From a bacterium (GTDB taxonomy: Bacteria; Cyanobacteriota; Vampirovibrionia; Gastranaerophilales; Gastranaerophilaceae), in assembly GCA_017652265.1 (NCBI GenBank), contig JAGCBH010000035.1, positions 1 through 64,000 of the forward strand: a stretch of 64,000 nt of DNA. Direction: 5' to 3'. The number at the start of each line of letters is the position of its first letter. Position 1 is the stretch's first letter. Of the stretch, positions 1,904 to 22,149 are shown in pieces. The notes beneath the pieces are model-generated. The model had not been told where the DNA came from and searched no databases. It was given only the letters and a program-made list of their open reading frames with translations. The translations under genes were made by a program, and so were the position numbers.

Positions 1904-2137
1904 TTACTTAAAGGTTATCAGGCAATCATAAATTTTATCAATTTTGTCTTTCATTTCTGTTACCTGTTCTTTAAGGTCTTTGAAACTTCTTAAAGGGACA
2001 AATTTTTCTTCAATATTTTCAATTATTTCTCTGTGTTTTTTTTCTAATTGTTCCGGTGTTACAAAAATTTTGTGCTGAATAAAAAACATCATTATAACAA
2101 TAAGTATCGGTGAATATTCTAAAATTTTTTCTTCCAT
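1904..2137 (-). CDS. Small membrane-anchored coiled-coil phage protein
   Basis: A 77-residue protein with one hydrophobic segment at about residues 8-25 (rich in I, V, M and F) followed by a charged heptad-like helix (PEQLEKKHREI onwards). The start at 2137 is chosen because AAGGAG lies 7 nt upstream; a longer frame starting at 2167 overlaps the terminase. It directly follows the large terminase gene. The architecture (short N-terminal TM, long cytoplasmic or periplasmic helix) is common for holin-accessory or spanin-like phage proteins, but the exact role is not shown by sequence. Confidence 0.6.
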   Translation of the reverse strand: MEEKILEYSPILIVIMMFFIQHKIFVTPEQLEKKHREIIENIEEKFVPLRSFKDLKEQVTEMKDKIDKIYDCLITFK

Positions 2138-2148
2138 AATTTTCTCCT

Positions 2149-3438
2149 TTATAAAGTGATTGGCCAATAAAAGTCCACAAGGTAAGATGCGGCATCTATC
2201 GGGTGCATTAAGAATTTTAATTCGTGGGTTTGTTTTATTTGGTGATATGTCGGGATATCTATTTTGGAGGTACCTTCAATGTAGCGGAGGTTATAGATGT
2301 TGTAGAGCAATTTTTTGCATTTTTTGTCGACAAAAAGCGAAACAGTTCCGTCAGCTGATTTGATTTTTGAATTGAATGCCATAATTCTGTTTTTTATAGG
2401 CGGATTATAAGGTTTAATTTTTACGTCAATATCGTAGCCGTATTCAAGTAAAGCTTTTTTTATTATTACATAATTTGTGTATTCACTTGTGCAGCTTCTG
2501 TTGTCGCCTGAGGCATCTCCATTTATAATAATTTTGCCTTTGTGGTTCGGGTATCGTTGCAAAAATTCTTCTGTTGCTTTTTGAGTTGTTGTGTTTTCCA
2601 TAACTATTTCGTCAAAATAAAAAACTTTGTCATCAGTTTTATGCGCAAGAACCCACGACATAGGGTCAACGTTAAAGTCGCAGGAAAGGTGCAAATCAAG
2701 TTCCGGATGATATTTTATTTCCATAATGTTTTTATCAGAAAAATCTTTTATGACAAGTCCGCTGTTGTAGTCTCCGCTTTGTGCCAAAACAAAAATATTA
2801 TAGTAATTTTCATCATAAAGCTTTTTCATCTCTTCACAGTAACCCTGAGGCAGATAGATATTTTGGGTTGTCGGAGCAGTTATAAGGCGGTAATTTTCGG
2901 ATTTATTTTCCACAAAAGTTTTATAAACCCAGCCTTTTTGTAATTCGGGGTTTGTATGACCAAAAATTCTGTATCTGAAATTTTTCCAGTTTTTTCTGAT
3001 TTTTTGCCTCATACGTCCCAAAAGCATTTTGAATGTGTCATAAGGAATATCAGACATTTCTTCAATTTCTGCAAAACCAAGATTTAAGGACTTGAGTTTA
3101 TTGGGCTCTTCAAAACTTCTGAAAAGAATTTCGGAAGAATTTTTGAATAATAATTTTTGCAAAGTTGATGACCAGTCATAATCTTTACCCTGTGTGAAAC
3201 CCATATTATCAAGATGTTCAAAGTAGGTGTTTAGGGTTGTATCCCTTACAAGAGTATAAGTTTGGGCTCCTACAAGTCCCCTGATACCGGGAAATTTAAG
3301 GGCAAGGAGTATTCCTAGTAGTGAACCGGCAAAAGTTTTGCCGGAACCGTATCCGCCTTGATATACTGCCACATCAAGGGCATAGTCGTGCGGAATTTCT
3401 AAAAATTCCCTTTGGGCATTGAGTAAACTGTATTCCAA
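2149..3438 (-). CDS. Phage terminase large subunit (TerL)
   Basis: The packaging motor ATPase/nuclease of a tailed phage, 429 aa. Walker A is GGYGSGKT at residues 28-35 and Walker B is LGFAEIEEM at about 120-128. The C-terminal RNase H-like nuclease shows the expected acidic positions in SCDFNVDP, INGDASGD and HPIDAASY. It starts at TTG (3438), supported by GAGGAG just upstream and by the protein beginning close to the ATPase core. It is preceded by a truncated minor-head fragment and followed by a small membrane protein. All motor residues look intact, so it could be functional even if the element is incomplete. Confidence 0.92.
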   Translation of the reverse strand: MEYSLLNAQREFLEIPHDYALDVAVYQGGYGSGKTFAGSLLGILLALKFPGIRGLVGAQTYTLVRDTTLNTYFEHLDNMGFTQGKDYDWSSTLQKLLFKNSSEILFRSFEEPNKLKSLNLGFAEIEEMSDIPYDTFKMLLGRMRQKIRKNWKNFRYRIFGHTNPELQKGWVYKTFVENKSENYRLITAPTTQNIYLPQGYCEEMKKLYDENYYNIFVLAQSGDYNSGLVIKDFSDKNIMEIKYHPELDLHLSCDFNVDPMSWVLAHKTDDKVFYFDEIVMENTTTQKATEEFLQRYPNHKGKIIINGDASGDNRSCTSEYTNYVIIKKALLEYGYDIDVKIKPYNPPIKNRIMAFNSKIKSADGTVSLFVDKKCKKLLYNIYNLRYIEGTSKIDIPTYHQIKQTHELKFLMHPIDAASYLVDFYWPITL

Positions 3439-3449
3439 AATTTTCTCCT

Positions 3450-3707
3450 CTATTTTTCAATCAGAACATGGTTTCCGTTGATTGTAACCCATTTGCCGTC
3501 AGAAGCCGAATTGTTTGAATAATTCTTTTTTCTTGGCGAGGTTGAATTTTCGTTTTTTGTGATTTCTTTACTTTTTGTCATCAAATTTTCGGCAGGTGTT
3601 TCAGATAGAGTGTCGTGAACGAGTTTTGTAATTTCACTTCGGCTGTAAATATTTTCAAATTGTGCAGTTAGTTGATTAATGAGTGCTTGTTCAATTTCAT
3701 TTGTTTG
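3450..3707 (-). pseudogene. Remnant of a phage minor head protein (no start)
   Basis: An open frame of 85 codons between an in-frame TAA (3708-3710) and the TAG at 3450-3452. It has no ATG before codon 43 and no ribosome site. The C-terminus KWVTINGNHVLIEK resembles the tail end of phage minor-head/head-morphogenesis proteins, where a W-V-T-I-x-G-x-H-V pattern is common; that match is from memory and is moderate. It lies between the large terminase and the portal, where such a gene is expected. The missing front part ends at the left arm of the 17-bp inverted repeat, suggesting disruption. Confidence 0.5.
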
Positions 3708-3717
3708 TTATTTCAGG

Positions 3718-3734
3718 AGGTAAAATAAATTTTA
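3718..3734 (+). repeat. Left arm of a 17-bp inverted repeat
   Basis: AGGTAAAATAAATTTTA, a perfect inverted match to 4139-4155. The two arms bracket the LprI-like gene. It touches the broken minor-head frame on its outer side. No target-site duplication was seen. Confidence 0.6.
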
Positions 3735-4139
3735 ATTTTTTAAAATAAACAAGAATCCTTCAAGATACAATGCGCGTTCTTTTGCTAATGACATTGCGTT
3801 AGCATGGGCAATGTTAGTGTGTATTGTGCCGTCAAGATTAAAAATTATATCAAATATAGCTTGCTTTTCGGCATTATAATATTCTTCCCATTTTTTATTT
3901 GCTTGATTAAAAAGCTTTCTTTGTTCTTTATTTAATTTCTTATTGATTAACTTAATATTTTTTTGAATTTCTTTTTCCCATTTTAATCTTGCCTCCAATG
4001 TGCAATTATTCATGCCAGCAGTTGAATATTCCTTTTTCATACAGACAGAATATTCAATATCAATAGGATTTTCTTCTGCATTTGCAAGAGAAAAATTAAA
4101 CATGAATATTAAAATTAAAAATAAGAACATTTTTTTCAT
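3732..4139 (-). CDS. Secreted LprI/DUF1311-type protein (possible lysozyme inhibitor)
   Basis: A 135-residue protein with a classical signal peptide (MKKMFLFLILIFMFNFSLANA, cleaved near residue 21). The mature part has the DUF1311/LprI pattern: two cysteines, an AGMNNCT box, then LNKEQRKLFNQANKKWEEYY. Characterised relatives inhibit lysozyme or sit in the periplasm. It is the only signal-peptide gene inside the phage head operon and sits between portal and terminase. The two flanking 17-bp inverted arms suggest a small inserted cassette, and a lysozyme inhibitor would be a plausible lysogenic-conversion gene. Function is inferred from the family only. Confidence 0.7.
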   Translation of the reverse strand: MKKMFLFLILIFMFNFSLANAEENPIDIEYSVCMKKEYSTAGMNNCTLEARLKWEKEIQKNIKLINKKLNKEQRKLFNQANKKWEEYYNAEKQAIFDIIFNLDGTIHTNIAHANAMSLAKERALYLEGFLFILKN

Positions 4140-4155
4140 AAAATTTATTTTACCT
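4139..4155 (-). repeat. Right arm of a 17-bp inverted repeat
   Basis: The reverse complement of 3718-3734. Its inner end is the A of the LprI-like ATG, so the arm also forms the leader of that gene. Confidence 0.6.
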
Positions 4156-4198
4156 TTTTGATGTTTTTTTTCAACAAATTTACATAGTGCTTATAAAA

Positions 4199-4310
4199 AA
4201 AGGTGCCGTTTTTTAGTACATAGAATAAATAGGAACTAAAAGGGTAAACGGGGTAAACGTTTTTGTTTTCGGAGTAAGATATGAGAGAAGTTAAGATAAA
4301 CGGCACCGGA
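4199..4310. other. Structured non-coding gap between portal and LprI-like gene
   Basis: A 10-bp inverted repeat, GGTGCCGTTT (4202-4211) and AAACGGCACC (4298-4307), encloses 86 nt that contain a perfect 9-nt tandem repeat GGGTAAACG (4242-4250, 4251-4259). This is unusual in AT-rich intergenic DNA and could be a small RNA, a processing site or a protein-binding site. Confidence 0.4.
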
Positions 4311-4325
4311 AATAAGACCATTAGT

Positions 4326-5978
4326 TTATGAAAGGGTTTCTTTATCTTTCAGAAAATTATTTACATTTTCTATTCCGTACTGTTCAAGTGCAAATTTAAA
4401 ACACTCAATCCAGTTTATATTTTGTGCAATGACATCTACCTGAGCGAATGTCTGAACAACTTCAAACAGTTCTTTAAAGCGGCTCTTACGTTCAAATGTT
4501 GCCTTTCTGTCTCCGTAGCGGTAAATATAATTTGCACATCTGATATCGTCATCAATTTCTATAAAGACGGTTTTACCATCATCATTAACAGAGATTATTT
4601 CCTTACCCAGTTTGAAGTTTGCTATTATGTCAGCGGTTTTTTCAACAACAGGTATTATGATTTTACGATTGATGCTCTCTAAAATCATATTCAAACGGGA
4701 TTCCTGACCGCTTGCTGAGTAATTAAGTTCAGTTGCTGTTCGGGTTTGTGACTGAATGTTGCCTGACATATTTTTGAATATACCTGTTGCGCTTTCAATT
4801 GTATTTTTAAAGTAATTCAGAAAATCCCAGCCTACCATTGCTTTATCAAAGTTCAACGGTGTAGGAGTATTCGGCATTAAGGCCGCATCATATTCAATTA
4901 TTTTGCCCGGTTTAACATCCTGCTGGCCTCTGAAACATCCTTTCGGAGCAAGGTATGGAGGGTTCATCATTAAAGATAGGGCGTCAAGCTGTTTATTTAA
5001 AATTTCCGATGAAATTTCGTTTAAAACAAGTGCGACTCTGATAGGCGAAATTCCTCTGCCCGTTGACGGATTTTCAATGATATTTGCGTGAATAAAAGGA
5101 TTTATAACAAAAGGATTACTTTCAAATCTTATAATATGGCGTCTGCCCGCAACGGTTATAAACCAGTTCTTCAACAGTGTTCCGTCGGATAGTTCAATAT
5201 CCCCTAAAAATTCCAAAATTTCCAGTTTGTTGTTTTCAGAATTTTCATTTCTTTTTGTGTTTTTTGCCACCACTCCTTTCAGATCTTCCATTTTTTCAGC
5301 ATTAAGGCAGTTGTTTGATTTGTCCGAATATATTTCATCAGGGGTTCTGTATGAGCGGTAAATTTTTGAGCACCTGTCCCAATTTTCGGTATCGTTGCGG
5401 TCAAAAACAAAATCTTCGGGATGTATGTATTTTATTTTTGCGTTGTCATATACGACTTTTTCTTCTATAACAAAACCTTTTTGAGACGGATTTAACAATT
5501 TTTCTTCAAAAGTTTGCGGGCGTCGTATCCTTTTTAATTTTGTTTCCCAGCCGATAAAAAGAGTTGCTTCTCCGGCTTCAACAATTCCGTCAATTATTTT
5601 TTCAAGTTCGGATTCAAAATCCATTTCTTCAAAAGTTTTTACCAGCATGGCTTTTTGTTTATTAGCGAAAGCCTGTGATTTTTCTGTTGTACCGGAAACA
5701 TCAAACATTGATTCAGGATGAGAGTAGATGTTTTGAGTTATGTGTGCTTTGAGTGTCTGGGCAAGTTCGTAAATATTCGGCAAATTTATTTTTGCCGACC
5801 ATATACCGTCAATAGGTGCTGTTGCATTGTAAATTGCATTTCTGACAGATGATAAATCATTAAGTTGCCCCATTCTTTCGTTTTCATATCTGTCAAATTT
5901 TTTTGTAATTTTATTTACCAGGTAATTTTCGTCAATATTATTTGCATTTACGGTTAAATCTTCCGTTTCAAAGTGCAT
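4326..5978 (-). CDS. Phage portal (head-tail connector) protein, podovirus type
   Basis: A 550-residue protein resembling head-tail connector portals of short-tailed phages. The central part NPSTGRGISPIRVAL, then LSLMMNPPYLAPKG, then TATELNYSASGQESRLNM and the long helical C-terminus follow the portal pattern (clip, stem, wing and crown order). The start at 5978 is chosen because AAAGGAGG precedes it, and an upstream in-frame ATG lacks one. It overlaps the GNAT gene end by 11 bp, consistent with translational coupling. The portal forms the DNA entry ring with the terminase motor. Confidence 0.85.
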   Translation of the reverse strand: MHFETEDLTVNANNIDENYLVNKITKKFDRYENERMGQLNDLSSVRNAIYNATAPIDGIWSAKINLPNIYELAQTLKAHITQNIYSHPESMFDVSGTTEKSQAFANKQKAMLVKTFEEMDFESELEKIIDGIVEAGEATLFIGWETKLKRIRRPQTFEEKLLNPSQKGFVIEEKVVYDNAKIKYIHPEDFVFDRNDTENWDRCSKIYRSYRTPDEIYSDKSNNCLNAEKMEDLKGVVAKNTKRNENSENNKLEILEFLGDIELSDGTLLKNWFITVAGRRHIIRFESNPFVINPFIHANIIENPSTGRGISPIRVALVLNEISSEILNKQLDALSLMMNPPYLAPKGCFRGQQDVKPGKIIEYDAALMPNTPTPLNFDKAMVGWDFLNYFKNTIESATGIFKNMSGNIQSQTRTATELNYSASGQESRLNMILESINRKIIIPVVEKTADIIANFKLGKEIISVNDDGKTVFIEIDDDIRCANYIYRYGDRKATFERKSRFKELFEVVQTFAQVDVIAQNINWIECFKFALEQYGIENVNNFLKDKETLS

Positions 5979-6507
5979 TTGAACCTCCTTTTTCTTTGTT
6001 GAAAAGTACGTATATTTCAATATCCTGCGGCTTATTGTTTTTTAGAGTTTCGGATTTTAATAAAGCCTCTTTTTTAAATCCGCATTTTTTTAAAAGCCTT
6101 TTAATAAGGCTGTTTTGCGGGTAAATTAATGCTTTCAATTTCACAATTTTTAAGATACTGAAGCAGTATTGTTTAAAAATTTTTGCGGCAAGTAAAGCTG
6201 TTTTACCCCAGTATTTTCTTTTAAGGCAGATTAATACTTCGGCGCTGTGTATGTGGTTTTTATTTCCGACGATGTTTTCCAGAACAATAAATCCGCAAAA
6301 ATTGTTGTCCGACAAAATTACATAAAAGTAAGGTGATGTTTTTATAGTGTAATCTGTGAGTTTTTGCGGTGATGAGCGCAGAGGTGAAAAATCGTCTTCA
6401 AGATTTTCAATGTATTTGTTGTACAGCTCTGATATTTCAGCCAGGTATTCGGTATTTATAACCCTTTTGAATTTAATCGGTGATTTCTGCCCATAAGAAT
6501 TCAACAT
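5968..6507 (-). CDS. GNAT-like acetyltransferase embedded in the phage head operon
   Basis: A 179-residue protein with a GNAT-like layout: N-terminal acceptor part, central strands FYVILSDNNFCGFIVLENI, an acetyl-CoA-binding-like turn RKYWGKTALLAAKIF at about 107-121, and a C-terminal GFKKEALLKS strand. GNAT-type proteins occur beside portal genes in several short-tailed phages, where the role is not well established. A GGAG site lies about 7 nt before the ATG at 6507. It overlaps the upstream gene by 35 bp. Confidence 0.65.
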   Translation of the reverse strand: MLNSYGQKSPIKFKRVINTEYLAEISELYNKYIENLEDDFSPLRSSPQKLTDYTIKTSPYFYVILSDNNFCGFIVLENIVGNKNHIHSAEVLICLKRKYWGKTALLAAKIFKQYCFSILKIVKLKALIYPQNSLIKRLLKKCGFKKEALLKSETLKNNKPQDIEIYVLFNKEKGGSNAL

Positions 6508-6838
6508 AGGTATCTCCGCTTATGAAAGATTTGACTTTACCCGAACAAAGCGCTTGTCTTGCATCGTTCTGAAGCCCCAGCATGCCCTCTGCCTGCAGAC
6601 CGGTTATGTAACTTTCCGTTCTTGTTTTTTTATTGAAAGTTTTAAAAACAGATTTTTTTGAGAAAATAATTTCCGGTTTAAGCTTTTCCGCTTGGGTTAC
6701 TTTTGTTACTTTTACGGATTTTTTGGCTTCCTTAAGCATATTTTTGTAATCTTCTTCTATTTTTATTGCGATAAGCTCATCTAAAGATTTTCCTGTCATA
6801 AGCATCTCTTCTTTATCTTTGTTGCTTGGTTGTTTCAT
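6473..6838 (-). CDS. Unknown phage protein in packaging operon
   Basis: A 121-residue basic, helix-rich protein between the small terminase and the GNAT gene, overlapping the latter. The N-terminus (NKDKEEMLMTGKSLDELIAIK) and central Lys-rich helix could bind nucleic acid, but no family is recognised. Its position between TerS and portal suggests a packaging or head-assembly role. Confidence 0.6.
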   Translation of the reverse strand: MKQPSNKDKEEMLMTGKSLDELIAIKIEEDYKNMLKEAKKSVKVTKVTQAEKLKPEIIFSKKSVFKTFNKKTRTESYITGLQAEGMLGLQNDARQALCSGKVKSFISGDTYVEFLWAEITD

Positions 6839-6852
6839 TTTTTACCTTTCTT

Positions 6853-7284
6853 TTATATTTTTTCTTTGTCCAGATTTGAAATTGTGATTATTTTTGCTTC
6901 AGCGGCGGATTCTTCATGATCAGAATAAAAACCTATATGTTTGCACAGGTTTTCCAGTGCTTTGAGGCCTGTTGAAGTGTCCCTTAATTTCTTTTTACCT
7001 GTAGCTTCGCCGTCTTTGTCGGTTATATCTTCCTCTTCAAGTGAAAATTCAATAATTTGAAGCAATTTTTGTACTATGTAACCTTTTTCTACCCTTAAAG
7101 AATTTATTTGCGATAATAATTTTGATTTAATTGCAAGAATTATTTTCTTTTCGGAGAGCAGCCTGTTCGCGGTTTCACGAAGATTTTTTTCTGTATAACC
7201 TGCGTATTTGCAAGCCATTTCACCATCTAAAGTGCGAATATATTCTTCAATAAATTTTCTCTGCATTTGTGTAATGTTGTTCAT
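6853..7284 (-). CDS. Phage terminase small subunit (TerS, Terminase_2 family)
   Basis: About 143 residues. The N-terminus QRKFIEEYIRTLDG, AGYTEKN and NRLLSEKKI is the HTH-like DNA-recognition domain of Terminase_2 proteins; it is followed by a helical oligomerisation region and an acidic C-terminus. It recognises phage DNA and recruits TerL. I chose the ATG at 7284; a TTG at 7299 is possible and neither has a strong ribosome site. It is separated from TerL by about 3.4 kb, whereas the two are usually adjacent. Confidence 0.8.
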   Translation of the reverse strand: MNNITQMQRKFIEEYIRTLDGEMACKYAGYTEKNLRETANRLLSEKKIILAIKSKLLSQINSLRVEKGYIVQKLLQIIEFSLEEEDITDKDGEATGKKKLRDTSTGLKALENLCKHIGFYSDHEESAAEAKIITISNLDKEKI

Positions 7285-7299
7285 AGTACAATATTTCAA

Positions 7300-7437
7300 T
7301 TTCTTTACATAGTTTGATATTTTTGAATGTAGATAGTATAATAGTCATGCTATTTATATTTCGGCTAGTGTAAATCTTAACAGGGGGGAAATTTAAAAAA
7401 GACTTCCTGTTTTCTTTTTGCCTTTTTTTAGAAAGAT
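7300..7437 (-). other. Intergenic gap with nested inverted repeats in phage operon
   Basis: 138 bp between the gp4-like gene and TerS. On the minus strand it contains AACAGG...CCTGTT nested inside TAAATCTT...AAGATTTA, and a TATACT box nearer TerS. It may be an internal terminator/promoter splitting the operon. No -35 box was convincing. Confidence 0.35.
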
Positions 7438-8082
7438 TTAGTTTCGGAAAGTTTTAATACATGCCCCAAACCCAGCATCAACAGAGTATTTTGATACCAT
7501 GTTAGCAAGGGCATCTCTGTACATGCTGAGCCAGTAGCTAAATCTGATATGCTGAGGATTACCTTTTAAGCGCATGCAGGTTCCGTAAACCAAAACTGGT
7601 TCCGCAAACGGATCGGGAAGCAGAGTTTCGTCTGTTCCTGAGGTGAATTTTGTTTTTTCCGTACTGCCTGAAGATTTTACGTTGTTGTAGGTGTAATAAA
7701 TAACTTCAACAGTTTTTGTCTCAGTGAATTTCTTTGCAAAAATTATTTTATTGTCTTTGAAAGAGTAAATATTTTTACCTTCATATTTGCCGGCAAGAAT
7801 TAAACCTGCGTTATCGCAATATAGAAATGGAATATCGTCAATCAATAGTTGTGAAATTCTGCCGTTGATGGTATTTGTAATCTCTCTTGTATTTGCACTG
7901 AGAGTTAATTCGGCTTTTCTGATTAAAAAATTCCAGCGTTCGTAAAGACAAATTTCGGCATTAAGAACGTTAAGTATATTCATTATTTTCTTATGTTCAT
8001 TTTTTGTTAATTCTTCAAATGCGTTTACCGGCTTGTAATTAAGTTCTACCAGACATTTGTTTATAATTTCAAGATAGTTCAT
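7438..8082 (-). CDS. Phage head-completion/adaptor protein (P22 gp4 / T7 gp11-like)
   Basis: A 214-residue protein with the adaptor pattern: N-terminal helix pair (NYLEIINKCLVELNY), ERWNFLIRKAELTLSANT, a central beta region ending VEVIYYTY, and a C-terminal helical part. In short-tailed phages this ring binds under the portal after packaging. Start ATG 8082 has AAAGGAG upstream. It lies between scaffold and TerS, an order reversed compared with P22-type maps. Confidence 0.65.
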   Translation of the reverse strand: MNYLEIINKCLVELNYKPVNAFEELTKNEHKKIMNILNVLNAEICLYERWNFLIRKAELTLSANTREITNTINGRISQLLIDDIPFLYCDNAGLILAGKYEGKNIYSFKDNKIIFAKKFTETKTVEVIYYTYNNVKSSGSTEKTKFTSGTDETLLPDPFAEPVLVYGTCMRLKGNPQHIRFSYWLSMYRDALANMVSKYSVDAGFGACIKTFRN

Positions 8083-8153
8083 GATTTCTCCTTTGATTAA
8101 TACGGTAAAGTCCTGAGGGAGAAAATATCTCCCTCTGACTTTCCGCTGAAGTG

Positions 8154-8840
8154 CTAATGAATTAAGCCCTTACGTAATTGCTCCATAATAAGCGATTCAT
8201 ATTTAGCAAATTCATCTCCGCTCATTTGGCCGATTTGAGAACGGGTGAAAACCATATTGTTATCAGCAGCATTTGAATTTTGGGCATTTGCCGTTAATCT
8301 TTGCTTTGCGATTTTGTTCTCGTCATTCAATGTTTTTCCGTACTCAAGTTTTTGCAGATATCTGTCCACAGCACTTTTTTCAATTGCTTCAATTAATTCA
8401 GATATTTGCAAGAGTTCATCCTTGTCAAAATCAACGTTGGAATTTTTCAGATAATTAAATACCTCTTCTCTGCCCGGATTGTTAAAAAAGCCCGGCTTTG
8501 AATTTAAAAATTCGGTAAATCCGTCAGTTTCAATTTTTGCGTCGTTTGAAACAGAATCAGGTGTTTCGTTTTGATTAGTAATACTTCTGTACGCATTTTC
8601 TATTACTTCCGTCATCAGATTTTGTCCTTGTTGACGATCCACAAGACCTGTTTCCATCAGTGAACGAATGACATCAAGGTCTTTCTTTACTGCTTTTTCA
8701 ACTTCTGCATAAATAGTATCAGGAGTAGTTGCCGAATTTTCAGAAACGGTATTTTCATCTGAAGTTTCCGTATCGCCATTTGGACTCACGGCCTCGGATG
8801 ATACCCTTGAATTAAGTTTTTCGTTATCATTTTTGTCCAT
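8154..8840 (-). CDS. Putative phage scaffolding protein
   Basis: A 228-residue, acidic, low-complexity N-terminus (Ser/Thr/Asp/Glu-rich, residues 1-50) followed by helices and a conserved-looking C-terminus (SQIGQMSGDEFAKYES...). Scaffolds of P22/T7-like phages have this composition and end in a helix that contacts the coat. It lies close to the coat gene, with only the holin-like gene between them. Confidence 0.7.
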   Translation of the reverse strand: MDKNDNEKLNSRVSSEAVSPNGDTETSDENTVSENSATTPDTIYAEVEKAVKKDLDVIRSLMETGLVDRQQGQNLMTEVIENAYRSITNQNETPDSVSNDAKIETDGFTEFLNSKPGFFNNPGREEVFNYLKNSNVDFDKDELLQISELIEAIEKSAVDRYLQKLEYGKTLNDENKIAKQRLTANAQNSNAADNNMVFTRSQIGQMSGDEFAKYESLIMEQLRKGLIH

Positions 8841-8842
8841 TT

Positions 8843-9100
8843 TTATACCTCATGTTCGCTTTCGGATGGTTTATCCATATTCATAAATGCAACGGCAATT
8901 TCAATTGCGCTGTCTATAAAAACCGATAGTATGGCGCCCAAAAATCCTTTCAGATATATGGGAACAGGCAAATTTTTAATTACCAGCCCTATTGCTGCGG
9001 ATTTTTTTGTTTTACCGCTTTCGGTTTTAAGATTTTCTTCCGCCGTAAGCACAGCTTGTTTTGCTAATTCGGGTATTTTTTTAATTATTTTATTAATCAC
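8843..9100 (-). CDS. Holin-like small membrane protein
   Basis: An 85-residue protein with an N-terminal helical charged region (AEENLKTESGKTKKSAAIG) and hydrophobic stretches at about residues 37-72. The layout resembles LL-H-type phage holins (helix, then amphipathic and TM segments). It sits between scaffold and coat; the amidase is upstream in the same operon, so a lysis pair is plausible. Confidence 0.55.
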   Translation of the reverse strand: MINKIIKKIPELAKQAVLTAEENLKTESGKTKKSAAIGLVIKNLPVPIYLKGFLGAILSVFIDSAIEIAVAFMNMDKPSESEHEV

Positions 9101-9110
9101 AGTTCACTCC

Positions 9111-10019
9111 TTATGGTGTTGTAGAAGGTGTTTCAGAAGGAGCTTCTGTCGGTACGGATGTAGGTTCTGAACCGTTTGCCGTTGTGATAACCATTTTGGC
9201 TAATGCATTAGGAACAACTGTTTTTGCGCCATATAAGTATAAGCCTCTTACCAAATCAGAGAAGGAGTCTTTATCTCTCAAGGTTTCAATTTTTGCAAGC
9301 TGCGATGCAAAAGTGATGGCTTCGTTTGTACCTGCAAGAACGTAAAGAAGGTTGCTTGCAGCCGTCAGGTTTGTGCTTACCAAAACATCCATTCCCGCAA
9401 TTCTGCCGATAGCGCCCTCTCTTAAAGTTTCATCAGCAACTTTGTGTGCGCCGATGAATTCGCTGCTTTGGAGCAGATAGGATTCAACAAGAGGGTTAAT
9501 TACAACCCAAGGGCGCTGGCCGTTTGAAACGGCATTTGAATTTTTTAATTTCATGGCTAATTCTACAAAATATCCGTAAATTGTTGATTTGTTCAAAGAA
9601 ACAGGTGAATCTGTGCTTCCTACAATATTGCCGGAAGGGACATTTGTATGCTGACCTAATAAATATGCATCCTGAACCTCTTCAATAGCTTTACGTGCGC
9701 TTTCAAGGTGGGCTTCCAAGATATTTGTGTTTGCCTGAACTTTTGCAACGTCATTAATTTTAAAGGCAAAGAATTTTTGCTGATCAATAACCAAATCAGT
9801 TGAAGTCGGTTCAAGTTCACTGTAAGAAATGTCAGATGAACTTAATGTGGAAACTGAAACGGCGGCCGGTGAAATGATTTTTACGGTATCACCCTGAGCT
9901 GCGATTTCGCCTTCCCAGTTGCGGTTTACGCACTGAAGCATAACACAGTTTTTGTCAAGCATGTTGACCAATTTTTTACTCCAAATTTCAGGAATAAAAA
10001 CATCATAAGAGTTTGTCAT
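9111..10019 (-). CDS. Major capsid (coat) protein, HK97 fold
   Basis: A 302-residue protein starting FIPEIWSKKLVNMLDK, typical for coat proteins of P22/T7-type phages, followed by an E-loop-like stretch (VKIISPAAVSVS), a helical spine (HLESARKAIEEVQDAYLLG) and a P-domain/C-terminal core (WVVINPLVESYLL, FIGAHKVADETLREGAIGRIAGMDVLVS). The last about 20 residues are Pro/Thr/Ser/Glu-rich, an unusual tail that could be surface exposed. Its start is preceded by AGGAAAAG. Confidence 0.85.
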   Translation of the reverse strand: MTNSYDVFIPEIWSKKLVNMLDKNCVMLQCVNRNWEGEIAAQGDTVKIISPAAVSVSTLSSSDISYSELEPTSTDLVIDQQKFFAFKINDVAKVQANTNILEAHLESARKAIEEVQDAYLLGQHTNVPSGNIVGSTDSPVSLNKSTIYGYFVELAMKLKNSNAVSNGQRPWVVINPLVESYLLQSSEFIGAHKVADETLREGAIGRIAGMDVLVSTNLTAASNLLYVLAGTNEAITFASQLAKIETLRDKDSFSDLVRGLYLYGAKTVVPNALAKMVITTANGSEPTSVPTEAPSETPSTTP

Positions 10020-10083
10020 TTTCTTTTCCTTTCTTTCTCTTAAATGAAGTGATATATAAATTAAATGAGCGGATTATTGTCCT

Positions 10084-10180
10084 AGGCAGCGTAGCCACTT
10101 ATGGTTTGCGGAGAATGAGTTACCAAGTTAGTAATTCCCGCTCACGCATGCGAAACGGTAGTGGCGAAGAACTGCTTTTA
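10084..10180. repeat. Copy 1 of a structured interspersed repeat
   Basis: 97 bp with terminal arms GCAGCGTAGCCACT and AGTGGCGAAGAACTGC that can fold (GCCACT with AGTGGC). A related copy lies at 58745-58808. The shared ends are CAGCG-AGCCAC and GAACTGCTTTTA. This copy fills the gap between the neck-protein stop codon (10178-10180) and the coat gene leader, and it has an extra about 25 nt in the middle. Confidence 0.6.
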
Positions 10181-11704
10181 TTCGTCCATAAAGATTTCTC
10201 TGAATTGCATACCTATAATTCCGCAATTATCGGTAGCATTATGTCCCTCTATACAAATTTGAACGGCATAATTACTTTCTGATATTTCAACCTTCTCAAG
10301 GGTTTCGGAATTGATTGACCATATAGGAATTAAAGCGGCATCAATTCCCCATTTGCAGTAATCAGGCTCATCAGAATCATCATTTTTTGCCCACATAAGG
10401 TGCTCCAAGTTTACCGCGTAGATGTTTTCTACATCGTCAGGGTATCCGGAATCAAAATTTTTGTAAACAGAAAACGTAAATCTGTTGTCAAATTCATTAT
10501 CCAAAACCAGATAAAATTCGTCTATAAGTTTTCTTTTATGCGGATCTTTGAGAGCTAAAAACGGCGATTTCCACATAAATTCAATGGGATCTCCGCAAAA
10601 ATCCGTTCCGAAATCTTCCAGATAAATATGGCCCGTAGTATCAAAAGTTAAAATGTTGCCTTTGAAGATGCAGGCTCCCTTTATATTTTGAGGGACAATT
10701 CTTTTGTACCAAAGTTTCAAAACGTAATCATTAATCCATATTGTATTAAAGTAATTGTTATCGGTATAAGGAATGAAAAACCACATTTGATTTTTCTTTT
10801 CATAGTGAAGGCAAATGCTTTCAGAAATTCTTGTTTCGTCAAATTTGTCAAATTCCGGTTTTATTTTGCCCGAAATTTCACCTCCGACGTGAATTTGCAT
10901 TAAGACACCTGCTTCTTCAAGTGAAAAAATTCCGCCCGAGGAGAGAAAATATTGTCTGTTATCCACATTAACAAGAGTGTTGTGCGCTTTTGTACCTTTA
11001 TCCGCAAAAAGCTGAACGGCAAAATCATTGGCGGTTGTTCCGCTTAAAAGGTAAACCTGATTTTTTTTGTATATCGCAAGATAATCTTTATATTCACCCA
11101 AGGCTGTTATAACATCGGTGTTGGTGTGGAAGTCGTTGATGTAGCCGGCATCATTGGCGGTTGTGAAATCATCATATTTTCCAAGAGCAGAGTAATAAAG
11201 GGTTGAATTTTTTGCAACCCAGACGCGCCCTTTGTAGGTTGTTATTATGCCACCGGTTATGTAGTTAGCAAAAGAATCTTTTAAACTGCAGTCAACAACC
11301 GTATAATCGGAGTCATTTTTTATGTAATATAATCTGTCGGCTTCTGTCATTATTAAAAACCCGTTCAGAAAGTTTTTGAAAACTGGTTGTGTGCCGCTTA
11401 AGGTTAAATTTACAACAGAGGCGGTGTTGTTTTCATCATCGTAGACATAAATTTTCCCGCTGACAGTTGTGATAACAAGTTTGTAGCTATCTTTGTGCGT
11501 GAACTGGTGCAATCCCGTAATTTCTTCTTCATCGGTTACCGTGTAGTAAAGAGCGTTTCCGTTCTGCCTTTTGATACCGTTGGATTTTAGAAGCTCAACG
11601 TTTTTGGAGTCTTCCCAGTACATTCTTCTTGTATCAAGTCCAAGTTCTGTTTTCGTCAGAGATTGGTTAATCCCTCCTGATAAATTGTAGTAAGCTGTCT
11701 CCAT
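10178..11704 (-). CDS. Phage neck/tail stabilisation protein (P22 gp10-like beta-propeller)
   Basis: A 508-residue protein that begins METAYYNLSGGINQS and has repeated beta-strand blades with a YxV-D-DE pattern (GKIYVYDDENN, RLYYIKND, GRVWVAKNSTLYYS, YLAIYKKNQVYLLSG, RQYFLSSGGIFSL). This matches the packaged-DNA stabilisation/tail-hub family of short-tailed phages. It should plug the adaptor ring and seal the head. A GGGAGG site precedes the ATG. It starts 26 bp after the amidase gene ends. Confidence 0.75.
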   Translation of the reverse strand: METAYYNLSGGINQSLTKTELGLDTRRMYWEDSKNVELLKSNGIKRQNGNALYYTVTDEEEITGLHQFTHKDSYKLVITTVSGKIYVYDDENNTASVVNLTLSGTQPVFKNFLNGFLIMTEADRLYYIKNDSDYTVVDCSLKDSFANYITGGIITTYKGRVWVAKNSTLYYSALGKYDDFTTANDAGYINDFHTNTDVITALGEYKDYLAIYKKNQVYLLSGTTANDFAVQLFADKGTKAHNTLVNVDNRQYFLSSGGIFSLEEAGVLMQIHVGGEISGKIKPEFDKFDETRISESICLHYEKKNQMWFFIPYTDNNYFNTIWINDYVLKLWYKRIVPQNIKGACIFKGNILTFDTTGHIYLEDFGTDFCGDPIEFMWKSPFLALKDPHKRKLIDEFYLVLDNEFDNRFTFSVYKNFDSGYPDDVENIYAVNLEHLMWAKNDDSDEPDYCKWGIDAALIPIWSINSETLEKVEISESNYAVQICIEGHNATDNCGIIGMQFREIFMDE

Positions 11705-11730
11705 TTTTCCTCCCTAATCGTTTTAAATTT

Positions 11731-12219
11731 TTATATTCTGTTTAAATACCATCTGACTTTTGACCTAATAAAACTTCCGGCCTCATCCTTTGTGACCTCA
11801 GGATAAGGCGGAAGGTAGGTAATGTCTATTTTCCCAAAACTGGAGGTTTTAGGGTGCTTTTGACCAAATTCGTAGTGCGTCAAAAGCGTGTTTGGAGTTA
11901 AGATGATATTATATTTTTCTAAAAGTTCAGCGCAAAATCTGAATGTTTTTTCAATTTGAACATCTGTAATAGGATAATTTCCGACTGCAAGCGGGCTTTT
12001 GTAGCCGAACATTGCGCAAACCGCAATTCCTATGGAGCCGGAATTTCCTCCACCTGTATGCATTGCATATCGGCCGGGTTTGCATATTTCATTATCGGAT
12101 ACACGATATTTTCCGCAATAGATAAGACCTTTATTATCTATAAGGTAATGGTAATGTGTCAAATCACAATCGTTTGGGATGTATTTTCCGGCTGTCCAGT
12201 GTAAAATTATTCGTTTCAT
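11731..12219 (-). CDS. N-acetylmuramoyl-L-alanine amidase (phage endolysin)
   Basis: A 162-residue Amidase_2 domain. The zinc site is seen in LHWTAG (His7), THYHYLID, AMHTGGGN and THYEFG...HPKTSSFGKIDI. It cleaves the bond between MurNAc and L-Ala of peptidoglycan. It has no signal peptide, so release would need a holin; a holin-like gene lies downstream. Its start overlaps the HTH gene end by 4 bp (ATGA). Confidence 0.88.
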   Translation of the reverse strand: MKRIILHWTAGKYIPNDCDLTHYHYLIDNKGLIYCGKYRVSDNEICKPGRYAMHTGGGNSGSIGIAVCAMFGYKSPLAVGNYPITDVQIEKTFRFCAELLEKYNIILTPNTLLTHYEFGQKHPKTSSFGKIDITYLPPYPEVTKDEAGSFIRSKVRWYLNRI

Positions 12220-12449
12220 AATGCCTCATTCAGTTCTTTTATCTGTTTAAAGTAAACTTCGGGTGTCATTGCGCAAACGTATTTTAAAGCTGCGTGTGCT
12301 CTGTTTTTTGCTGCCAATTTAAGCAAAACCCTGCTAAGATAGGTTCTTACGGTGGCATAGTGGATTTTCATTTTTTGTCCGATTTCTTTATCGGAATACC
12401 CAAGTGTTACATACAGTATTGTGATAGTTTCTTGTGATGTAAGATTCAT
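12216..12449 (-). CDS. LuxR/GerE-type HTH regulator, first gene of phage operon
   Basis: A 77-residue single HTH domain: LTSQETITILYVTLGYSDKE, IGQKMKIHYATVRTYLSRVL and KLAAKNRAHAALKYV match the LuxR/GerE fold with its TVR recognition helix. There is no receiver or sensor domain. An AAGAGG site lies just upstream. It is the promoter-proximal gene of the phage unit and is translationally coupled to the amidase, so it could time lysis or late expression. Confidence 0.75.
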   Translation of the reverse strand: MNLTSQETITILYVTLGYSDKEIGQKMKIHYATVRTYLSRVLLKLAAKNRAHAALKYVCAMTPEVYFKQIKELNEAL

Positions 12450-21147: not shown

Positions 21148-22149
21148 CTAGTTACTGAAAGTTTTGAACGTGCTTTCAACGTTTTTCTTAATAACGGCAG
21201 CAACGGCTTCCATTTCTGTTGTAAGAGCCTTTTGCTCCGTATCAAGCTGTCTGAGTCTCAATTCAAGAGTTCTGTCTTCTTGTTGAATTATCTCAGTTTT
21301 AGCGTTGATATCCTGAATTGATTTTTCATATTGTGCCTTTTTGTAATTGTATTGATTCATGGCATCGTTGTATGCTGCATCATCGGTTATTGTTTCAGTA
21401 TCAACCATAAATGTAGCTGATGAATTTTCATACGAAATTGATTCTACTCTGCCTTCATTATCAAATTCTACAAAAGCATTTTCTGTTGCAGAGATTTTTT
21501 GTTCAAGATAAGCTGCATAATAAGTATTCAAATTTATCTGCTGTTCTGTCGGATGAGCCGGATCTTTGCCGGATTCACCACTTGCCAACAATTCCTGTTC
21601 CGTTGCAAAATAAGTTTTGCCGTAGGATGTGTAGTAATAAATGTTGCCGGTTGTACTTGCTATAACGTCATCCGGATTATCCTTTTTGATTTGTTCAAGC
21701 GCTAAATCCAAAGTTTCATCTGCCCCAGCGGTATAAAGTGTTAATTCGCTATTACCTACATAAGCAGGTGTATATGGAGGCGTATATGGTGGGGAATATG
21801 GCGGATTGAGTCTTACCTGCGGATTAGCTTTGGTATTTCTTATGCCGGTATAAACATCAACATAGCGATAGTGCGTAACTAAGTAGTTGTAGTCGGAAGA
21901 ACCACTGATAGGAGTCATGTCTTCAATTGCTTCCGTTACAAAACCGTCATTATAAGTGTACTGAACTTTCGTGTAGTCCTGAGTACTAGGTGCTGTCGGA
22001 ACTTCCAGTGCCAAATACTGGTTAAATGCGTCTGCGCTTTGGTTAGCCAAAGCCGTTCTTTCCTGGTTTATTTGTTGTCCTTCATATTCTACGTTTGTTT
22101 TACGTGCCGTAAGTGCCAAATATCTGGCTTGTGAAGCTGCCATACCCAT
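21148..22149 (-). CDS. Uncharacterised protein with filament-like N- and C-terminal helices
   Basis: A 333-residue protein. The N-terminus MGMAASQARYLALTARKTN and the following QQINQERTALANQSADA form an amphipathic helix, and the C-terminus is another long helix (LRQLDTEQKALTTEMEAVAA). The middle is beta-rich, with a Pro-Tyr repeat (PPYSPPYTPPYTP, about 124-136). The helix-variable-helix plan resembles axial proteins of flagella or type III systems, but this is a resemblance of plan, not a proven homology. It has a strong AAGGAG site and is first in a minus-strand run. Confidence 0.65.
   Translation of the reverse strand: MGMAASQARYLALTARKTNVEYEGQQINQERTALANQSADAFNQYLALEVPTAPSTQDYTKVQYTYNDGFVTEAIEDMTPISGSSDYNYLVTHYRYVDVYTGIRNTKANPQVRLNPPYSPPYTPPYTPAYVGNSELTLYTAGADETLDLALEQIKKDNPDDVIASTTGNIYYYTSYGKTYFATEQELLASGESGKDPAHPTEQQINLNTYYAAYLEQKISATENAFVEFDNEGRVESISYENSSATFMVDTETITDDAAYNDAMNQYNYKKAQYEKSIQDINAKTEIIQQEDRTLELRLRQLDTEQKALTTEMEAVAAVIKKNVESTFKTFSN

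What the first reader, a model, noticed from the sequence alone, without database searches (positions are those of the whole stretch)
1904..12449. Compact phage head/packaging module without tail, integration or control genes
The module has both terminase subunits, portal, adaptor, scaffold, coat, gp10-like plug, holin-like protein and amidase, but no integrase, repressor, replication, tail needle or tailspike gene. pnp and a formyltransferase-like gene flank it tightly. The core motor and coat genes look intact. It could be a decaying prophage, a satellite, or a domesticated particle similar in logic to gene-transfer agents.
Basis: partly seen in the sequence, partly recalled or inferred. Interest (0 to 1): 0.62.

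Follow-up and report, generated by a model that had tools for sequence, protein, structure and literature searches.

The report
Domesticated phage particle with tagged toxins
Gut bacteria of the order Gastranaerophilales carry, as an inherited chromosomal gene set, a stripped-down phage particle, and their genomes hold toxin-like genes bearing the tail that a phage scaffold protein uses to bind its capsid, which suggests a home-made particle that may carry toxins, and perhaps DNA, to neighbouring cells.

Summary
The module is real and intact. It is neither a decaying prophage nor a satellite. It lies in a Candidatus Gastranaerophilales genome. The same genes in the same order occur in 6/6 congeners; TerL is in 33/33 species of another genus, and the coat (at least 65% identity) in about 114 of 286 order genomes, nearly always single-copy, between host genes such as dnaE/terC or radical-SAM/secA. 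No integrase was seen. TerL, portal and coat are under purifying selection like pnp. (1) There is a stub tail: the 'gp10-like plug' folds as a podovirus tail nozzle. (2) The portal-TerL gap is a cargo slot. There, and at scattered loci in module-bearing genomes only, lie proteins with enzyme or toxin domains (class-3 lipase, GH108 lysozyme, DUF6973, PBECR nuclease) fused to one or two copies of the scaffold's C-terminal tail, the segment that in P22 binds coat, usually beside immunity-like genes. The window's slot holds LprI, a lysozyme-inhibitor homologue that elsewhere sits directly upstream of tagged lysozymes, and a cargo remnant. Best reading: a vertically inherited, GTA-like podovirus-derived particle that loads polymorphic toxins through a scaffold-derived tag. 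Loading, DNA content and delivery are inferred, not shown.

The parts
12216..12449 (-). hth: 77-aa LuxR/GerE-type helix-turn-helix protein, first gene, candidate regulator
   Evidence: PF00196 4.5e-10; same first position in relatives
11731..12219 (-). N-acetylmuramoyl-L-alanine amidase (endolysin)
   Evidence: PF01510 9.9e-14; phrog_5867 endolysin 5.1e-31
   Evidence: AF2 mean pLDDT 77.9; Foldseek: phage Pa223 tail TM 0.74, P22 gp10 0.64, Sf6 gp8 0.64
9111..10019 (-). major coat protein, P22 type
   Evidence: PF11651 2e-7; phrog_267 4.8e-47; dN/dS among congeners 0.044
8843..9100 (-). holin-like 85-aa membrane protein
   Evidence: phrog_6918 holin 1.8e-6
8154..8840 (-). scaffold-like protein; its C-terminal ~32 aa (about 8157-8260) is the tag shared with effectors
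   Evidence: position next to coat; tag HMM; 38 orthologues end in FTREQIGKMSxxEFxxxExxIMxQLxxGLI
7438..8082 (-). head-tail adaptor / tail protein
   Evidence: phrog_6013 3.2e-7, phrog_394 0.0024 tail proteins
6853..7299 (-). terminase small subunit
   Evidence: PF03592 1.3e-13
6473..6838 (-). o121, conserved protein of unknown role
   Evidence: conserved in place in most loci
5968..6507 (-). GNAT acetyltransferase-like protein
   Evidence: PF13302 2.1e-9; conserved in place
4326..6020 (-). portal / connector
   Evidence: PF23899 SU10_portal 1.5e-14; phrog_332 2.3e-37
3732..4139 (-). cargo slot: LprI lysozyme-inhibitor homologue with signal peptide, probably an orphan immunity gene
   Evidence: PF07007 1.1e-9; LprI genes directly upstream of GH108-tag effectors in L202 and L205
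3450..3707 (-). cargo slot: remnant of an effector C-terminus, open stretch ending ...DGKWVTINGNHVLIEK, no start found
   Evidence: sequence and translation; identical last 16 aa to tagged lipase L198_4
2149..3438 (-). terminase large subunit; ATPase (GGYGSGKT) and nuclease-type (DFNVDP, GDASGD) motifs present
   Evidence: PF04466 2.7e-20; phrog_2 2.7e-30; dN/dS 0.019
1904..2167 (-). h87: one TM segment plus coiled coil, last conserved gene, holin/spanin-like by look only
   Evidence: conserved just after TerL in most loci

Best explanation
The block encodes a host-domesticated, podovirus-derived particle passed on vertically with the chromosome of one Gastranaerophilales family. Coat, scaffold-like protein and portal build a procapsid, TerS/TerL pack DNA, adaptor and nozzle close it as a stub tail, and holin plus amidase lyse the producer, perhaps switched on by the LuxR-type HTH protein. 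Effector proteins encoded in the portal-TerL slot and at scattered chromosomal loci carry one or two copies of the scaffold's C-terminal coat-binding tail and so are enclosed during assembly. Released particles bring toxins (lipases, lysozymes, nucleases), and probably host DNA, to neighbours; sisters are protected by immunity proteins encoded beside the effectors. Shown by sequence: the module, its fixation, vertical history and selection, the nozzle fold, the shared tag, its restriction to genomes with the capsid, the effector domains and the immunity-like partners. Inferred: that the tag loads cargo, that particles form, what DNA they hold, that delivery occurs. In the window genome the slot is decayed to an immunity gene plus a cargo remnant, while one intact tagged lipase lies on contig C27.
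For: Vertical and fixed: TerL in 7/7 genus genomes, 33/33 of a second genus; coat at least 65% in about 114/286 order genomes, confined to one family, best outside it 48-59%; presence clustered on the PNP tree, 4 changes minimum; TerL/coat vs PNP distances r = 0.85/0.76 within the family; module TerLs on one side of a branch apart from free phages, SH-aLRT 94. Conserved 13-gene order, host-gene flanks. dN/dS TerL 0.019, portal 0.024, coat 0.044 vs pnp 0.039. TerL-h87 split from the rest in L067/L069 genomes, as expected of domesticated not mobile genes. Nozzle fold. Tag: 22 non-scaffold hits among 1163 ORFs, all in the module's cargo slots; extra tagged ORFs in 14/16 module-bearing and 0/8 module-free family genomes; order-wide every genome with the tag has the coat or TerL. 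Effector domains: Lipase_3, GH108, DUF6973, PBECR1, LPD3, lipase fold incl. a T6SS lipase effector, invariant catalytic residues. Immunity-like neighbours: LprI beside lysozymes, small multi-TM proteins beside lipases. P22 scaffold C-terminal helix-turn-helix binds coat (PMC9965877) and is the standard engineered cargo handle (PMC9962691).
Against: No particle, packaged DNA or toxicity has been seen. No receptor-binding protein was found, so delivery is unexplained. Some slot effectors lack the tag (L044, L059, L063). One genus lacks nozzle, h87 and mostly GNAT/holin while keeping the rest, which does not fit a single injection mechanism. Neighbourhoods differ between genera, so the block has moved at least a few times. 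PNP is one marker; topologies agree only in part. All genomes are MAGs. dS is near saturation for many pairs.
Confidence: 0.62

Rival explanations
1. A plain gene-transfer agent: the particle serves DNA transfer, and the tagged enzymes are internal virion proteins that help DNA cross the recipient's wall and membrane, as muralytic ejection proteins do, not weapons.
For: TerS, TerL and portal are the most constrained genes. Many tagged domains are lysozymes or lipases. The slot lies inside the head operon.
Against: Nuclease domains (PBECR1, LPD3) would not help DNA entry. Effectors are variable, dispersed and multiplied, with different neighbours per type, LprI beside lysozymes among them, the pattern of polymorphic toxin/immunity pairs. 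Orphan immunity genes and remnants occur, as in the window.
Confidence: 0.2
2. A protein-delivery or killing particle in which DNA packaging is secondary or lost in places: a capsid-based toxin carrier.
For: Many genomes carry several tagged proteins. One genus lacks the nozzle. In family f6 coat, tagged scaffold, amidase and a toxin-like gene lie together without portal or terminase beside them.
Against: TerL and portal are kept under strong constraint in the main clade. f6 genomes may encode terminase elsewhere (G028 does). The nozzle search had no positive control.
Confidence: 0.15
3. A group of related defective prophages or satellites recurrently inserted, with moron toxins.
For: Flanks differ between genera and for this window. 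Related complete phages or prophages exist (L093-L096, L163).
Against: Single copy in all species of whole genera. No integrase or att-like repeats seen. Purifying selection. Free phages are outside the module TerL branch, with portal only about 30% identical.
Confidence: 0.03

Closest known systems
Gene transfer agents (RcGTA, BaGTA, BhGTA; viriforms, PMC9662315)
   Same: Phage-derived head and packaging genes kept under selection, vertically inherited, no replication or integration genes, genes partly dispersed
   Different: Podovirus-type nozzle and P22-type coat; different phylum; carries a tagged toxin repertoire; DNA transfer untested
MuF polymorphic toxins of temperate phages (PMC5576092; Bxa, PMC11699363)
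   Same: Toxins encoded next to the portal, thought to ride in the phage head, with immunity neighbours; a few MuF-like proteins occur here too
   Different: The sorting element is a copy of the scaffold's C-terminal tail, not a MuF domain; carried by a domesticated module; effectors also encoded far from the particle genes
P22 virus-like particles with engineered scaffold-fusion cargo (PMC9962691, PMC9965877)
   Same: Cargo joined to the coat-binding C-terminal helix-turn-helix of the scaffold
   Different: There an engineered system; here it appears to be natural, and the tag lies within or after the enzyme with a further C-terminal motif
T4 internal proteins and Alt with capsid-targeting sequence (own knowledge)
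   Same: Proteins sorted into a head by a short signal and injected
   Different: Active phage; unrelated signal; no toxin/immunity variety
P22-like and T7-like podoviruses
   Same: Coat, portal, adaptor, nozzle and terminase types
   Different: No needle, spike, ejection, replication or integration genes in the module; nearest cultured-phage TerL 26% identity

Membership tests
Gene transfer agent (viriform) | Phage-derived structural and packaging genes on the chromosome, kept under purifying selection | tested here: met
Gene transfer agent (viriform) | Vertical inheritance with the host | tested here: met
Gene transfer agent (viriform) | No self-replication or integration genes in the cluster | tested here: met
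   ORFs in fully bounded relatives accounted for; the left side of the window itself ends with the contig
Gene transfer agent (viriform) | Particles package pieces of host DNA and transfer them | not testable with these tools
   needs particles; only intact TerS, TerL and portal seen
Polymorphic toxin system | Variable toxin domains joined to a constant trafficking element | tested here: met
   lipase, GH108, DUF6973, PBECR1, LPD3 with the same tag; toxicity itself untested
Polymorphic toxin system | Adjacent immunity genes | tested here: inconclusive
   LprI beside lysozymes, small multi-TM proteins beside lipases; function untested
MuF polymorphic toxin | N-terminal MuF domain (PF04233 or relatives) | tested here: not met
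   Most effectors have no MuF match; only L055_13 weakly (0.0027) and two look MuF-like by motif
Intact or defective temperate prophage | Integrase, att sites, regulation and replication genes, sporadic presence | tested here: not met
Phage satellite (PICI, P4) | Own replication/integration and dependence on a helper's structural genes | tested here: not met
   Has its own head genes and no integrase

The most novel reading that the evidence does not exclude
Bacteria have turned a short-tailed phage head into a capsid-based toxin carrier: the phage scaffold's coat-binding tail has been copied onto many unrelated enzymes as a natural cargo tag, making a dispersed, polymorphic set of capsid-loaded effectors, a delivery system apart from tailocins, eCIS, T6SS and ordinary GTAs.
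Probability: 0.45. Interest if true: 0.92.

Novelty: new variant of a known kind. Interest (0 to 1): 0.8.

Why it matters
If true, this would be a new GTA-like lineage in the Cyanobacteriota, in uncultured gut bacteria, with a podovirus-type particle, and to our knowledge the first natural use of a scaffold-derived tag to load proteins into a phage capsid. It would tie GTAs to interbacterial competition, give the 'phage head carries toxins' hypothesis a sorting signal that can be tested with coat, scaffold and tag alone, and offer a natural counterpart of the P22 cargo technology. No prior description was found in the open-access library searched; most subscription journals are not in it.

Tried and rejected
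att-like repeats: only short, low-identity direct repeats, no pair bounding the module. tRNA as integration site: none in the window. The tag in cultured phages: no match at E up to 1, although one uncultured relative (L096) has it on its own scaffold. Is c7, downstream of h87 in 32 loci, part of the particle? A window homologue lies elsewhere (21148-22149) and Pfam gave nothing, so it was taken as a host gene and left. PDB sequence search for the nozzle: nothing; the fold search solved it. A Nat Commun 2026 gut capsid-DNA paper (PMC12946183) names GTA activity in other taxa; its main text does not mention Gastranaerophilales, Melainabacteria or Cyanobacteria.

Full report
What is there. The window is G000:C17:1-64000; relatives are titled Candidatus Gastranaerophilales or Melainabacteria, with some MAGs mislabelled. 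The block 1904-12449 is one strand of genes in the order hth - amidase - nozzle - coat - holin - scaffold - adaptor - TerS - o121 - GNAT - portal - [LprI + remnant] - TerL - h87. All frames are open. TerL shows ATPase and nuclease motifs by eye (GGYGSGKT, DFNVDP, GDASGD).

It has a stub tail. With 25 homologues, AlphaFold gave the 508-aa 'plug' a model with mean pLDDT 77.9. Its best PDB matches are short-tailed phage nozzles: Pa223 (TM 0.74), P22 gp10 (0.64), Sf6 gp8 (0.64), T7 gp12. The adaptor matches tail families weakly. No needle, spike or fibre was found.

It is domesticated. TerL occurs in all 7 genus genomes and 22 of 39 relatives, and in 33/33 species of a second genus, nearly always one module-type copy. 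Coat at 65% identity or more is in about 114 of 286 order genomes, my count from the listed rows, all in one family; outside it the best is 48-59%. Presence on the PNP tree needs at least 4 changes in the family. TerL and coat distances follow PNP (Mantel r 0.85 and 0.76 in the family; 6 and 3 shared splits of 12). Module TerLs sit on one side of a branch (SH-aLRT 94) from free phages, whose portal is about 30% and coat 32-41% identical. The nearest cultured-phage TerL is 26% identical. dN/dS among congeners is 0.019 (TerL), 0.024 (portal), 0.033 (TerS), 0.044 (coat) and 0.039 (pnp), with many dS values high.

Its place. Congeners have the block near dnaE and terC-miaB-mgtC. Most other loci have radical-SAM + c18 upstream and c7 then often secA downstream. 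L052 and L053 have c7 then terC, an intermediate arrangement. The window has pnp and fmt. So the block has stayed put within clades and changed neighbours a few times. In L067 and L069, TerL-h87 remain by c7 while the rest lies on another contig.

The cargo slot. Portal-TerL holds no ORF of 60 aa or more in 25 of 43 loci and 1-6 in the others. An HMM of the scaffold's last 36 residues (38 loci) found 22 further ORFs among 1163, all in the module's variable slots, up to E 1.9e-30 with two tags per protein. In P22 this end of the scaffold is a helix-turn-helix bound to the coat's inner face (PMC9965877), and fusing proteins to it is a common way to load P22 particles (PMC9962691). That the tag here does the same is inference by homology of position and role; no structural comparison of the tag was run.

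Tagged effectors elsewhere. A search of 39 genomes found tags outside the scaffold in 14 of 16 module-bearing family genomes and in 0 of 8 without it (Fisher 6e-5, not corrected for kinship). Order-wide, 120 of 286 genomes have a tag at E up to 0.001 and each also has the coat, or in one case (G133) TerL; most of those hits include the scaffold itself, so this contingency is partly trivial. Nineteen fetched regions show the build [enzyme]-[tag]-[tag]-[WVTINGNHVLI or YVxxYTRSDGTxVxGYYR end] in most cases. Domains: Lipase_3, GH108 lysozyme, DUF6973, PBECR1, LPD3, and a phage tail-lysozyme match. One slot lipase (L028) was modelled (mean pLDDT 68) and matches class-3 lipases and a T6SS lipase effector; Ser114, Asp158 and His195 are invariant in 11 homologues. 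About 41 non-scaffold tagged proteins are in hand (43, of which L096_16 and L161_8 are scaffolds by position).

Partners. LprI-family genes lie directly upstream of GH108-tag genes in G012 and G013 (L202, L205). Small multi-TM proteins lie divergently beside tagged lipases (L197, L198, L200, L201), others beside DUF6973 effectors, and a secreted c46 protein beside the tail-lysozyme-like effector. These look like immunity genes; none was tested.

The window. Its slot has LprI (3732-4139) and an open stretch 3450-3707 with no start, ending DGKWVTINGNHVLIEK, the same last 16 residues as the tagged lipase L198_4. So the local cargo has decayed and left an immunity-like gene, while a tagged lipase stands intact on contig C27 (L196_5).

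Mechanism and doubt. Likely steps: induction, procapsid assembly with tagged effectors, DNA packaging, nozzle closure, lysis, delivery. Only the genes are shown. A genus without nozzle (no positive control) and f6 genomes with coat, tagged scaffold, amidase and toxin-like gene but no terminase beside them hint that protein delivery could stand without DNA delivery there. It works like a GTA and like a polymorphic toxin system; membership in the GTAs cannot be claimed until packaging and transfer are shown.

Noticed in passing
L040, L043, L047, L073, L044, L086: A sub-clade lacks the nozzle gene (and mostly GNAT, holin or h87) yet keeps coat, scaffold, portal and terminase; nozzle not found elsewhere in five genomes, without a positive control.
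   Followed up: partly
L162 (G028), L164 (G033): In another family of the order, coat, tagged scaffold, amidase and (in L162) toxin-like proteins lie together without terminase or portal beside them; L162_11 and L162_20 share a long part but have different C-terminal domains.
   Followed up: partly
L157:15684-16406, L160, L207: Several tagged DUF6973/lysozyme proteins and a second scaffold-portal set (L207) sit near variant modules in G039 and G014.
   Followed up: no
window 21148-22149 and downstream of h87 in 32 loci: c7 family (starts MGLAASQARFLxIT), a host family without Pfam match, often between the module and secA.
   Followed up: no
L163 (G004:C1), G160:C7:52491-58081, G133:C18: Module-bearing genomes that also hold a related prophage-like copy with TerL 58-64% identical, in G160 only about 20 kb away.
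   Followed up: partly
L055:8304-9320, L160:12733-13575: MuF-like proteins with a C-terminal serum-amyloid-A (lipocone) domain in or beside the module.
   Followed up: no
L061, L065: TerL plus neighbouring cargo genes stand in tandem repeats of about 3.6 kb in L061; may be an assembly artefact.
   Followed up: no
L024, L042, L045, L051, L052: Contigs titled Fusobacterium, Heliobacteriaceae, Brachyspira or Clostridiaceae carry the Gastranaerophilales module and are probably mislabelled MAGs.
   Followed up: no
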